Source: Saccharothrix sp. HUAS TT1 (GTDB lineage Bacteria; Actinomycetota; Actinomycetes; Mycobacteriales; Pseudonocardiaceae). Taken from it: 64,000 nt of DNA. Below are positions 2,197 through 5,992 of this stretch, piece by piece. The stretch is from the NCBI RefSeq assembly GCF_040744945.1, contig NZ_CP160453.1:5766001-5830000 (forward strand), in the 5' to 3' direction. A program made the position numbers and the translations under genes. How positions within the stretch are numbered: position 1 is the stretch's first letter; each line of letters starts with the position of its first letter. The notes beneath the pieces are model-generated. The model ran no database searches. It had not been told where the DNA came from and was given only the letters and a program-made list of their open reading frames with translations.

Positions 2197-3261
2197 CTAC
2201 AGCCGGACCTCCCCGTCGATGCCCGCGAACCCGAGCAGCCGGCCGCCCTCGGCTTCCACGTCGGCCCGCTGCGCGCTGGTCAGCGGCCGGAACACCGTGA
2301 CGTCCAGGCCGGTGGCGGTGATCTTCCAGGTGCCGTGCACGAAGCCGTCCACCAGCAACGTCGGCTTGCCGCCGATGACGATCCCGCGCCGGTAGTCCTC
2401 GTCGGAGATGACCCTGGTGCGGTCGTCGTGGCCGAGCAGGAGGTTGTCGAACTCGGGCAGGAACCGGACCGGCGCGGGGGTGTCGGGGTCGGGCAGCGGC
2501 CCGTCCGGCACGTCGTAGAGCCGCCGCCCGCGCTCGTCGGCGAAGACCCGCAGGTCCATCGCCTCGACCACGGGCTTGAGCCGGGTCATGCCCACCCAGG
2601 TCTGCAGGTCCTTCACCGACGCCGGTCCGAACGCGGCCAGGTAGCGGCGCACCAGGTCCTCGACCGGCGCCGCGGGTCCGGCGGGACCGAGCCAGCGCGC
2701 GGCCGTCGTCCACGCCGCCGGTCCCGACCGCCCCCACACCGCCCGCGGCGTCGCCTGCACCGACGGCACGAGGTAGCTCGCCGCGTAGCCGAGCGCGTCG
2801 GCGTCGTGGCCGGGCCACTGCGGTCCGAGCAGGGCGCTCAACTCGGGCCGGGTGCGCGGCCGCTCCTCCAGCAGCGCCGCGGCGACGTCGAGGAACGCGT
2901 CCAGGTCGAGCCCGTCCAGCACGGAGCCGAACGGCGAGGAGGCGAACCGGCGGTGCAGGAACGGCCGCAGCAGCGGTTCGAGGCGGCCGTGGTCGGCGGC
3001 GGTGACCAGGTGGATGGTGGCGCGGTGCAGCGCGGCCCGGACCACCCGCCGGTCCAGCAGCAGCGCGCCCAGCTCGTCGGCCTCGAACGACCGGGTGCGC
3101 GACCACAGGCCGTAGTACGGCGAGAAGGGCTCCTGCGCCTGCAGGCCGACCAGGTGCTCCACCACCTCGACCGCCGGGCGCGACACCCGGTCGAGGAGGA
3201 ACTGCCGGTGCAGGGTCGCGCGGTTCAACGCCTTGGTGCTCAGCACGCCGGTCTCGATCAC
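2197..3261 (-). CDS. Winged-helix DNA-binding protein, AlkZ/YcaQ-like (HTH_42)
   Basis: A 354-residue protein resembling the HTH_42 (DUF1006) family. It has the family's early NRATLHRQ segment and a GLQAQEP stretch near residue 40 that gives a Q-x-Q motif; in AlkZ and YcaQ such a motif is part of the active site that excises bulky or cross-linked alkyl adducts. Tandem winged-helix folds are expected in the first two thirds. AlkZ-type relatives in actinomycetes give self-resistance to DNA-alkylating natural products, but many paralogues have unknown roles and no producing cluster is seen here. It is transcribed away from the P450 gene across a 145-bp gap. DNA glycosylase activity is inference. 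Confidence 0.75.
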   Translation of the reverse strand: MIETGVLSTKALNRATLHRQFLLDRVSRPAVEVVEHLVGLQAQEPFSPYYGLWSRTRSFEADELGALLLDRRVVRAALHRATIHLVTAADHGRLEPLLRPFLHRRFASSPFGSVLDGLDLDAFLDVAAALLEERPRTRPELSALLGPQWPGHDADALGYAASYLVPSVQATPRAVWGRSGPAAWTTAARWLGPAGPAAPVEDLVRRYLAAFGPASVKDLQTWVGMTRLKPVVEAMDLRVFADERGRRLYDVPDGPLPDPDTPAPVRFLPEFDNLLLGHDDRTRVISDEDYRRGIVIGGKPTLLVDGFVHGTWKITATGLDVTVFRPLTSAQRADVEAEGGRLLGFAGIDGEVRL

Positions 3262-3406: not shown

Positions 3407-4558
3407 ATGAAGATCGCGGATAGGCGCCGGTTCCGGCAGGACCCGCTGCGGTACCTGGACGACCTGCGGCGTGGCAGCGCGACGGGCGTGATCCGGTTGC
3501 CCTGGGGCGGCTGGTGCGTAAGCGACGCGGACCTGGCGCACACCCTGCTCCGCGGTCCCGAGCACAACGCCGGCCCGTCGTCGTTCTTCGGGGAACTGCT
3601 GCCGTCGCGGACCGCGCAGGTGGACGTGGGCCACGCGGTGCGGAACGTCCTGCGGTCCCGCCTCCCGCGGTACCGGGAGGCGATGGCCTCGGCGGTGGCC
3701 GCGCTGCCCGGGGCGACGCGGTGGCCGGAGACCGGCGCCGACCTCGTGCACGACTGCCTGGCCGACGTGCTGCTGCACCCCGGCGCCCCGGAGGTGCGCG
3801 GGCTGGTGGCCCGGGCGGTGCGCGGTGGCGTCGTGTTCCGCGCGCCGCGCGTGTGGCAGCGGGCGCGGGCGGAGGTGCTGCGCGCCAAGCTGGTCGCCGC
3901 GGTGACCGAACAGGCCCGGCAGCGCCGCGAGGAGGGCGTCGGCGAGCCGCGCGACGTGCTGGACGCCGTGCTCACCGCGTGCCCGGGCGACCTGTCGGAC
4001 CGGGCGGTGGCCGAGCTGCACCTGATGCTGTTCCGGTCGATCGTGGCGCCGGTCGCCACCTCGCTGGCGTGGTCGGTGCTGCTGGCCTGCCTGCGCCACA
4101 CGTCGGACGAGCCCTGGCCGTGGTCCGCCGACCACGTGCTGCGCGAGGCGCTGCGGCACCGGCCGATGGTGTGGATGGTCGGCCGCACCGTCACGCGCGA
4201 CACCGACTTCGGCGGCGTGCCGCTGCGCACCGGCGACGTCCTGTCGGTCAGCCCCTACCTGCTGCACCACGACGAGCGCCGCTGGGACGACCCCGGTGCG
4301 TTCCGGCCGGAGCGCTGGGCGGATCAGGACGGCCGCGGGCCCTACATCCCGTTCGGCGCGGGGCCGTTCACGTGCGCCGGCGCGGCGGTGGCCCACGAGC
4401 TGATCACCGAGGCGTTGCTGGCCCTCACCCGCGACGCCCGGCTGCGCGTCACCGGCGCCGACCCGCGCCCGGTCATGGCCGAGGGCGTCGTGCCCCGGCC
4501 CTTCACGGTCCACCGGACCCCTCACGCCCAGCTCAGCCCAGGTAGAGGAGGTGAATGA
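3407..4558 (+). CDS. Cytochrome P450, possible RiPP cross-linking enzyme
   Basis: A 383-residue P450. The haem loop F316-x-x-G-x-x-x-C323-x-G325 is complete and the K-helix E-x-x-R is E247/R250. The I-helix is atypical: the usual acid before the conserved Thr is replaced, reading A214-P-V-A-T218-S, as in some P450s with specialised oxidative-coupling chemistry. The protein is shorter than the common ~400 residues. The start follows a GGAGG-rich leader. No ferredoxin or reductase gene is adjacent. Two bases after its stop begins a 20-codon gene with an ideal ribosome-binding site, so the likeliest role is oxidative cross-linking of Trp/Phe side chains in that peptide. This rests on analogy with biarylitide, cittilin and atropopeptide loci, not on a recognised close homologue. 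Confidence 0.88.
   Translation: MKIADRRRFRQDPLRYLDDLRRGSATGVIRLPWGGWCVSDADLAHTLLRGPEHNAGPSSFFGELLPSRTAQVDVGHAVRNVLRSRLPRYREAMASAVAALPGATRWPETGADLVHDCLADVLLHPGAPEVRGLVARAVRGGVVFRAPRVWQRARAEVLRAKLVAAVTEQARQRREEGVGEPRDVLDAVLTACPGDLSDRAVAELHLMLFRSIVAPVATSLAWSVLLACLRHTSDEPWPWSADHVLREALRHRPMVWMVGRTVTRDTDFGGVPLRTGDVLSVSPYLLHHDERRWDDPGAFRPERWADQDGRGPYIPFGAGPFTCAGAAVAHELITEALLALTRDARLRVTGADPRPVMAEGVVPRPFTVHRTPHAQLSPGRGGE
4546..4554 (+). promoter_or_regulatory. Ideal Shine-Dalgarno for the 20-codon gene
   Basis: AGGAGGTGA matches the 16S rRNA tail over nine bases and lies within the last codons of the P450 gene. An in-frame ATG at 4555 is only 3 bases beyond AGGAGG, whereas the ATG at 4561 sits at a normal 9-base distance; this decides the start at 4561. 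Confidence 0.75.
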
Positions 4559-4560
4559 CC

Positions 4561-4623
4561 ATGACCGCCGTGTTGCACCGCGTTTTCCGCAACAAGCCGG
4601 CCCGCCGGTGGTTCTGGCAGTGA
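4561..4623 (+). CDS. Candidate RiPP precursor peptide, 20 residues
   Basis: A 20-codon gene two bases after the P450 stop, preceded by a nine-base Shine-Dalgarno match and followed within 6 bases by a 20-bp hairpin. The product is MTAVLHRVFRNKPARRWFWQ. It has a basic first part (R7, R10, K12, R15, R16) and an aromatic end, W17-F18-W19, before a final Gln. Very short precursors with an aromatic C-terminal core next to a single P450 are the hallmark of P450-cross-linked RiPPs (biarylitides YYH, cittilins YIYY, atropopeptides with Trp/Tyr cores, cihunamides WSNW). Here the peptide gene follows the P450, and a WFWQ core is not one I recognise. Leader-core border and maturation are inference; a chance ORF is the alternative, made less likely by the signals on both sides. 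Confidence 0.65.
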   Translation: MTAVLHRVFRNKPARRWFWQ

Positions 4624-4628
4624 CGGCC

Positions 4629-4675
4629 ACCGGTCCGGTGGTCCCGGGCGCGACACCCGGGACCACCGGACCGGT
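4629..4675. terminator. Perfect 20-bp hairpin, likely bidirectional terminator
   Basis: Arms 4629-4648 and 4656-4675 are exact reverse complements over 20 bp with a 7-base loop. It lies between the end of the peptide gene (4623) and the convergent end of the SHMT-like gene (4679). No U-tract follows, which is common for actinomycete terminators. Confidence 0.8.
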
Positions 4676-4678
4676 CGA

Positions 4679-5992
4679 TCAGGCGTCGTTGACCGCCCGC
4701 CGCAGGGCGATCGCGTCCGCCCGGACCCGCTCGGGCGGTTCGCGGTCGATCAGGGCGCGGCGCACGAGGTCGGCGATGGCGGGCTGGTGCTCGGGGGTGA
4801 AGCCGCGGCGGGTGATCTCCTGGGTGCCGATCCGCAGGCCGCGCAGGCCCTCGTCGATGCGCTGCCACGGCAGGCTGATGCCGCTGAGGTAGACGCCGGC
4901 CTCGCCGAGCAGCACGGCGGCCGCGTCGCCGCCGCCGAGGGTGAGCGCGTCGACCGCCAGGTGGTGGGAGCGGGTGAACTCGCCGTCGTGGCGGGCGACG
5001 TCGAAGCCGTTGTCGGCCAGCGCCCGGCCGAGCGCCCGCGCGTTGGCGATGCACGCCCGCGCGTACTCCGGCCCGTGTTCGGCCAGTTCGGCGGCGGTGA
5101 CGGCGAGGGCGCCGAGGCGGCCGGCGTCGTAGTTGGCGAGCATGCCGGGGTAGGCGACGGTCGAGACGCGTTCGGCCAGGTCGGGGTCGCGGGTGACGAC
5201 GCAGCCGCCGGACGGGCCGCCGAACGACTTGTAGGTGGAGAACGTCATCAGGTGCGCGCCCTCGTGCAGCGGGCGCTGGAACTCGCGGCCGGCGACGAGC
5301 CCGGCCATGTGCGAGGCGTCGTAGACCAGGACCGCGCCGACCTCGTCGGCGGCCGCGCGCACCGCGGCGACGTCGTGCGGGAACAGCATCAGGCTCGCGC
5401 CGATCACCACGATCCGCGGCCGGTGCACGCGCAGGAACGCGGGCAGCCTGCCGTAGTCGATGTCCAGCTCGTCGGGCAGGTAGGGCAGGTCGACCACGGT
5501 CAGGCCGCGGATGGCGGGCACGCCCTGGGCGTGGTGGCTGGCGTGGCCGCCGGCGAACTCGGGCAGCACCGCGATCTTGTCCCCGGCGCGGGCGAACGCG
5601 GTGTACACGGCCAGGTTGGCCAGCGTGGCGCTCTGCAGCCGGACCTCGGCGTAGCGGCCTTCCATCAGCTCGGCGACGAGCATCGGCGCGAGCACTTCCA
5701 CGGTGTCCAGGTGGTCCAGCCCGACCTGGTACTTCTCGCCCGGCCAGCCCATGCTCGGCCGGCTGGACACGCCGGTGGACACGGCCGCCGCGGCGGTGGG
5801 GCTGAGCACGTTGGTGCCCGCGTAGAGCACGATCCCGTCGTCGTCGACCTGCGCGGCGTGCGCTTCGAGGGCCTTGCGGACGGTGACCGCGACACCGGCG
5901 GCGGTCAGGTCGGCGGAGACGGCGGCTTCGACCTCGGCGAGCCTGCGCTGCGCCTGAGGTGAGGCCCAGGGCGCGATCCTGCTGTTCGTCAC
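4679..5992 (-). CDS. Serine hydroxymethyltransferase-like PLP enzyme
   Basis: A 437-residue fold-type I PLP enzyme of the SHMT family. The cofactor lysine lies in FSTYKSFGGPSGG (around residue 254), matching the SHMT active-site loop, and YDASHMAGLV matches the family's Asp-x-x-His motif. Length is close to bacterial GlyA (~420), but the N-terminus and some loops diverge, so it may act on another hydroxy-amino acid or an alpha-methyl substrate rather than being the housekeeping enzyme. The only plausible start in frame near the divergent promoter is GTG at 5992. It is transcribed away from a PucR-type regulator, the arrangement of a substrate-induced catabolic gene. It ends against the 4629-4675 hairpin. 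Confidence 0.82.
   Translation of the reverse strand: MTNSRIAPWASPQAQRRLAEVEAAVSADLTAAGVAVTVRKALEAHAAQVDDDGIVLYAGTNVLSPTAAAAVSTGVSSRPSMGWPGEKYQVGLDHLDTVEVLAPMLVAELMEGRYAEVRLQSATLANLAVYTAFARAGDKIAVLPEFAGGHASHHAQGVPAIRGLTVVDLPYLPDELDIDYGRLPAFLRVHRPRIVVIGASLMLFPHDVAAVRAAADEVGAVLVYDASHMAGLVAGREFQRPLHEGAHLMTFSTYKSFGGPSGGCVVTRDPDLAERVSTVAYPGMLANYDAGRLGALAVTAAELAEHGPEYARACIANARALGRALADNGFDVARHDGEFTRSHHLAVDALTLGGGDAAAVLLGEAGVYLSGISLPWQRIDEGLRGLRIGTQEITRRGFTPEHQPAIADLVRRALIDREPPERVRADAIALRRAVNDA

What the first reader, a model, noticed from the sequence alone, without database searches (positions are those of the whole stretch)
3407..4675. P450 plus 20-residue aromatic-tailed peptide: candidate new P450-modified RiPP
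Two bases after the P450 stop starts a 20-codon gene with a nine-base Shine-Dalgarno match and a perfect 20-bp hairpin right behind it. The product ends RRWFWQ. Known minimal RiPP loci pair one P450 with a very short precursor whose C-terminal aromatic residues are cross-linked. Here the peptide follows the enzyme, the core would be WFWQ (or RRWFWQ), and the P450 I-helix lacks the usual acid. I recognise no described family with this core.
Basis: partly seen in the sequence, partly recalled or inferred. Interest (0 to 1): 0.9.

Follow-up and report, generated by a model that had tools for sequence, protein, structure and literature searches.

The report
P450-made Trp-x-Trp peptide gene pair
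A two-gene locus in a soil-type actinomycete pairs an oxidising enzyme with a 20-residue peptide whose relatives keep the same head and two tryptophans one residue apart, so the enzyme probably staples those tryptophans into a tiny ring; this looks like a further branch of a known kind of natural product.

Summary
In detail: the P450 gene (3407-4558), a 20-codon gene starting two bases after its stop with a nine-base Shine-Dalgarno match (4546-4554), product MTAVLHRVFRNKPARRWFWQ, then a perfect 20-bp hairpin. In 34 of 34 non-redundant loci with a P450 at least 51% identical (own locus included), a short ORF with the same basic leader lies behind the P450 (33 with a strong SD; L022 without). 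In 28 of 34 it ends in Trp-x-Trp plus 0-3 residues; both Trp and one leader Arg are invariant while x is Y, N, I, F, K or D. This is a RiPP precursor with its modifying P450. The only invariant cross-linkable pair is Trp17/Trp19, so the likely product is a Trp-x-Trp macrocycle. It fails the sequence tests for atropopeptides/bitryptides (no KSLK-type motif, wrong Trp spacing) and biarylitides. P450-cross-linked RiPPs ('cyptides') are a known superfamily, and this class may already be catalogued in papers I could not read. No cross-link was shown. I rate it a new variant of a known kind.

The parts
3407..4558 (+). Cytochrome P450, 383 aa, the putative peptide cross-linking enzyme; heme Cys323, ExxR 247-250; I-helix acid and Thr not conserved
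4546..4554 (+). Nine-base Shine-Dalgarno match AGGAGGTGA for the peptide gene, inside the P450 3' end; a similar G-rich SD lies upstream of each of the 28 W-x-W starts printed
   Evidence: one search prints the 28 start regions
4561..4623 (+). Precursor peptide gene, MTAVLHRVFRNKPARRWFWQ (leader about residues 1-16, core W17-F18-W19-Q20; the cleavage site is inferred). Alternative ATG at 4555
   Evidence: leader and W-x-W conserved in 28 loci, own included
4629..4675 (+). Perfect 20-bp hairpin, 7-nt loop, probable terminator; a long stem of different sequence follows the gene in most of the relatives examined
   Evidence: in 24 of 28 W-x-W loci (own included) the stem is longer than 95% of shuffles

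Best explanation
A minimal, two-gene RiPP pathway. P450 and precursor are probably made from one transcript; the precursor has its own strong SD and the transcript ends at the hairpin. The basic, probably helical leader ([RKH]-R-[IV]-[FL]-x-x-K-P-x-R-R in most members) guides the peptide into the P450. The P450, which lacks the usual acid/Thr pair for oxygen insertion, abstracts electrons or hydrogens and couples the indole side chains of Trp17 and Trp19 (loss of 2 H), closing a Trp-x-Trp ring. A host protease then cuts at or near the Arg-Arg, releasing cross-linked WFWQ (or an R-extended form). Shown: gene pair, conservation, the invariant Trp pair and Arg, the P450's family. Inferred: co-transcription, leader recognition, the Trp-Trp bond and its atoms, the cleavage site, and the product's role (probably a secreted small molecule; no transporter, protease or immunity gene was seen directly beside the pair in this window).
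For: 34 of 34 non-redundant loci with a P450 at least 51% identical over 300 or more residues (own included) carry the small ORF at -72 to +47 nt from the P450 stop, all with [RKH]R[IV][FIL] in the leader (33 called with an SD of 5 or more bases; L022 by its ORF alone). In the 28 W-x-W peptides (26 distinct genes): Trp 26/26 and 26/26, leader Arg(-10) 26/26, Pro(-4) 24/26, Arg(-1) 24/26, x = Y12 N8 I3 F1 K1 D1. Constant leader with a hypervariable inner residue is the RiPP pattern. pN/pS about 0.56. SD and downstream stem kept. No neighbouring ORF is shared by more than six of the 31 loci compared, mostly with 1.4-2.5 kb flanks, so the pair looks like the unit. Best NCBIfam match, far below its cut-off, is the RiPP cross-linking P450 ApyO (2.3e-20), which joins two aromatic residues at i,i+2 (PMC13192836, passages seen). 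Nine P450 loci at about 30-38% identity also have downstream aromatic-tailed peptides (L055-L060, L063, L064, L067).
Against: No product, mass or structure is known. Six of 34 loci depart from W-x-W: WEPDVWL-type (L050-L053), WSSSGSDWE (L022) and NSWFRAS with one Trp (L054), so a Trp-x-Trp bond is not universal in the wider group. A partial distant match (L062) has no such peptide. The pN/pS of 0.56 is only moderate for so short a gene. The AlphaFold model shows only a P450 fold; no enzyme-peptide complex was modelled, and residues 318-322 next to the heme ligand are below pLDDT 50.
Confidence: 0.8

Rival explanations
1. The locus is a plain member of an already described class (one of the cyptide groups, the 11 classes of P450-modified RiPPs, or the cittilin-type shandoamide/syrinamide/citreamide class), so little but the core WFWQ is new. 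This does not contradict the mechanism above.
For: Passages of later papers report 1057 clusters in 11 categories and '19 novel BGCs' in the cyptide survey (PMC12299652), and 787 P450s in cyptide classes other than biarylitides (PMC13417212); a group this common would probably be caught. That the 19 are groups is recalled. One relative (L023, core WNWE) is in a genome whose contig length equals that of a Saccharothrix syringae record, and one product set is called syrinamides.
Against: In the results listed by my searches no W-x-W P450 precursor appeared (two searches listed only 30 of 277 and 15 of 141 papers). SyrB is called cittilin-type, and that its strain is S. syringae is a guess from the name.
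Confidence: 0.6
2. The P450 joins Trp to another side chain or atom (for example Trp to the final aromatic residue in WYWY cores, or indole to backbone as in tryptorubin), or makes more than one bond, so W-F-W-Q would carry a different or additional ring.
For: x is Tyr in 12 of 26 distinct genes, in cores WYWY and WYWYAG. Atropopeptide P450s make one to several bonds of several types in such cores (PMC11450843, sections read).
Against: The residue after the second Trp is Q, H, P, A, E, Y or absent, and x may be K, D, N or I, so no other aromatic partner is constant.
Confidence: 0.25
3. The Trp-rich short ORF with a hairpin is a translation attenuator (a trp-leader-like element) or a spurious ORF.
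For: Short, Trp-containing, followed by a strong stem.
Against: The next gene (SHMT-like, 4679-5992) is convergent, on the minus strand, so there is nothing downstream to attenuate here. The ORF follows this P450 in 34 of 34 loci and keeps its leader.
Confidence: 0.02
4. The peptide is not the substrate but a small partner or regulator of the P450.
For: Strict linkage to the P450.
Against: The inner core residue is hypervariable beside invariant Trp, and more distant P450s have unrelated aromatic tails: this fits a substrate better.
Confidence: 0.06

Closest known systems
Atropopeptides / bitryptides (tryptorubin, amyxirubin, scabrirubin, cihunamides)
   Same: Small locus, often only one P450 and one precursor of about 20-30 aa with Trp near the C-terminus
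   Different: No KSLK-type leader motif in 28 of 28; Trp at i,i+2 instead of i,i+3; precursor behind the P450, whereas in the one KSLK locus I found (L079) it is in front; P450 25% identical to that locus's P450
Biarylitides (P450Blt, BytO, myxarylin)
   Same: P450 plus very short precursor, three-residue ring with partners at i,i+2
   Different: Biarylitide precursors are about five residues, MxYxY/H (PMC13417212, passages); here 20 residues with a leader and W-x-W
Aminopyruvatide P450 ApyO
   Same: Best NCBIfam match (2.3e-20; 72.7 bits against a cut-off of 525); joins an aromatic pair at i,i+2, accepts one Trp, needs a basic residue in the substrate (PMC13192836, passages)
   Different: Multi-gene cluster with an RRE and other enzymes, 66-aa precursor, Tyr-x-Tyr
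Cyptides (roseovertin, rubrin, lapparbin)
   Same: The proposed superfamily of P450-made aryl cross-linked RiPPs, into which this would fall
   Different: None of these three named products joins Trp to Trp (passage of PMC12299652); whether another cyptide group is W-x-W could not be checked (paper not held)

Membership tests
P450-cross-linked RiPPs (cyptide superfamily) | P450 gene linked to a short precursor with a conserved aromatic pair | tested here: met
   34 of 34 loci (51% identity or more) have the linked ORF, 28 of 34 with W-x-W
P450-cross-linked RiPPs (cyptide superfamily) | A P450-made bond between two aromatic side chains | not testable with these tools
   Needs expression and MS/NMR
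Atropopeptides | KSLK-type leader motif (KSLK, RSLK, ESLK, KSRK, KPLK, PSLK; PMC11450843) | tested here: not met
   0 of 28 W-x-W peptides have any of the six; a KSLK peptide was recovered in G690 as positive control (L079)
Atropopeptides | Core xWxxxx (Trp at position two of a core of about six residues) | tested here: not met
   Only three residues follow the first core Trp here; two or three in 27 of 28, five in L019
Atropopeptides | Atropopeptide class P450 | tested here: inconclusive
   84/333 (25%) identical to one KSLK-linked P450 (L079) against 51-67% within its own group; one reference only
Bitryptides | xWxxWx core | tested here: not met
   Trp spacing is i,i+2 in 28 of 34, i,i+5 in 4, other in 2
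Biarylitides | Precursor of about five residues, MxYxY/H | tested here: not met
   20-residue precursor, no Tyr or His in the core
Cittilin-type (shandoamide, syrinamides, citreamide) | Precursor and P450 similarity to SanA/B, SyrA/B, CreA/B | not tested
   Sequences not found; the type is named in one passage; the paper I tried was not held
RiPP | Genetically encoded precursor with conserved leader and variable core beside its modifying enzyme | tested here: met

The most novel reading that the evidence does not exclude
A structurally undescribed family of P450 RiPPs in which a dedicated P450 group closes a three-residue Trp-x-Trp ring (smaller than the i,i+3 Trp ring of scabrirubin) from precursors with a K-P-x-R-R leader, with close relatives that have moved to wider Trp spacings (W-EPDV-W); here the product is a cross-linked WFWQ.
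Probability: 0.4. Interest if true: 0.65.

Novelty: new variant of a known kind. Interest (0 to 1): 0.5.

Why it matters
If right, the pair is a very compact biocatalyst for joining two tryptophans one residue apart, a ring that I expect to be strained and hard to make chemically (inference). The inner residue is Y, N, I, F, K or D in nature, which suggests an engineerable scaffold. The group, with W-x-W, W-EPDV-W and single-Trp members, would let one ask how a P450 sets ring size. Genes of 20 codons are easily missed by standard annotation.

Tried and rejected

Literature: no paper listed by searches was seen to hold this precursor or a W-x-W P450 precursor; lists were capped (30 of 277, 15 of 141) and matching is by words, so this is weak evidence of absence. 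Look-ups of Nam 2023, Hu 2023 and four ids of related papers or reviews were not held; Liu 2024, He 2023 and An 2023 (cihunamides) were not looked up by id and are known only from other papers' text and recall. Seen: PMC11450843, abstract, sections 4 and 13, section 5 parts 1-3 of 4; PMC12352619, abstract, section 4, section 5 part 1 of 3, one passage; passages only of PMC13383641, PMC13192836, PMC12299652, PMC13417212 and PMC12951456.

Full report
Observation. The window holds a 383-aa P450 gene (3407-4558, +) and, two bases after its stop, a 20-codon gene (4561-4623) for MTAVLHRVFRNKPARRWFWQ, preceded by AGGAGGTGA at 4546-4554 and followed by a perfect 20-bp inverted repeat at 4629-4675. An ATG at 4555 overlapping the P450 stop would add two residues. 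The flanking genes lie on the minus strand: an AlkZ-like glycosylase (2197-3261) and an SHMT-like enzyme (4679-5992). The two genes therefore stand alone. The window is G000:C1:5766001-5830000 of an 8.7-Mb genome; same-genus genomes have contigs as long as named Saccharothrix and Actinosynnema records.

The enzyme. Pfam calls a P450 (3.3e-24); the best NCBIfam match, far under its cut-off, is the RiPP P450 ApyO (2.3e-20). In an alignment of the window P450 with 62 of the 120 homologues listed (53-69% identical; 272 found) the heme Cys and ExxR are invariant. The I-helix positions that normally hold Asp/Glu and Thr are S/G/A and mostly non-Thr. The AlphaFold2 model (pLDDT 84.9, pTM 0.87) is a P450 fold.

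Relatives. One scan of named genomes gave 7 loci. Whole-genome searches, own genome counted, gave 8 of 200 genomes of the family at E 1e-60, 3 of 394 of the class, 11 of 25 of the genus and 18 of 390 of the family with a homologue as query. In genus g71 (Streptomyces by a contig-length match to a named record) it was 19 of 392 at the loose E of 1e-22, of which 11 below 1e-100. The locus is thus patchy but spread over several actinomycete genera.

The peptide gene in relatives. After removing redundant loci, and keeping those with at least 50% identity over 300 or more residues, 34 remained (own included). All 34 have a short ORF at the end of the P450 gene with [RKH]R[IV][FIL] in the leader; 33 have an SD of five or more bases, and L022 (MLAALRRIFSFTPASNWSSSGSDWE) was not called by the SD rule but seen. 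Twenty-eight end in W-x-W plus 0-3 residues: WYWY, WYWYAG, WNW, WNWA, WNWE, WIWH, WIWP, WKW, WDW, WFWQ. Four end W-[ED]-P-x-V-W-L, one is L022, and one (L054) has a single Trp (NSWFRAS). In 26 distinct W-x-W genes both Trp and Arg(-10) are fixed while x varies. Start regions show similar G-rich SDs, and 24 of 28 have an unusually long stem behind the gene. As a control, 28 other P450 loci gave four SD-led short ORFs, three without an aromatic end; the fourth is the RWYYYHHI locus L067 found again through a neighbouring match.

Neighbouring classes. P450s at 30-34% identity have downstream peptides ending FWYLYHHI, HWYLYHHI or RWYYYHHI, and one at 38% has AWRIW; a partial match, L062, has none. 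One genome (G690, which holds a 100% match to an Amycolatopsis xylanica protein) contains three P450-peptide loci: RWNW, RWYYYHHI and a KSLK peptide ending AWYIWW that lies upstream of its P450. The last serves as a positive control for atropopeptides, and its P450 is 25% identical to ours. On the trees the W-x-W loci are not a single well-supported clade: L007 (WNW) groups with the W-EPDV-W loci, and some forks are open.

Mechanism. The strict linkage, constant leader and hypervariable inner residue mark a RiPP precursor and its enzyme. Because only the two Trp are constant aromatic residues of the core, the likely bond joins them. Which atoms are joined, whether more than one bond is made, the cleavage site and the function are inferred. 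Host proteolysis at Arg-Arg is plausible, since no protease gene lies beside the pair; for atropopeptides a ubiquitous protease is believed to act (PMC11450843, Introduction read).

Comparison. [quoted passage not shown] bitryptides by xWxxWx. Both sequence tests fail here. Biarylitides use five-residue MxYxY/H precursors (PMC13417212, passages). Three-residue rings between aromatic residues are known for biarylitides and ApyO (PMC13192836, passages). No W-x-W P450 precursor turned up in the results listed by my searches, but lists were capped and the surveys most likely to contain one were not held. I therefore call it a new variant of a known kind and give 0.6 to the class being already catalogued somewhere.

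Noticed in passing
L050, L051, L052, L053 (peptide just after the P450 stop): Related P450s with cores WEPDVWL, WEPNVWL, WDPPVWL: two Trp five residues apart on the same leader.
   Followed up: partly
L056-L060, L063, L064, L067: P450s about 30-34% identical with 28-30 aa downstream peptides ending FWYLYHHI, HWYLYHHI or RWYYYHHI; PDB 9ULW matches one of them (L058) at 1.4e-61.
   Followed up: partly
L055: P450 38% identical with downstream peptide MRKFIRRLQDVTAKQAWRIW, a W-x-x-W end without KSLK.
   Followed up: no
G690: L030, L067, L079: One genome with three different P450-peptide RiPP loci (RWNW, RWYYYHHI, KSLK...AWYIWW).
   Followed up: partly
L025, just after the peptide stop: The stretch coding WYWY and stop is repeated directly after the stop codon, one base out of frame.
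   Followed up: no
G288: L061, L065: P450 match split over two frames while the peptide gene (ends RRWYWY) is intact; decay or a sequencing error.
   Followed up: no
G110: L016, L020: Two copies of the locus in one genome with different cores, WNWA and WYWY.
   Followed up: no
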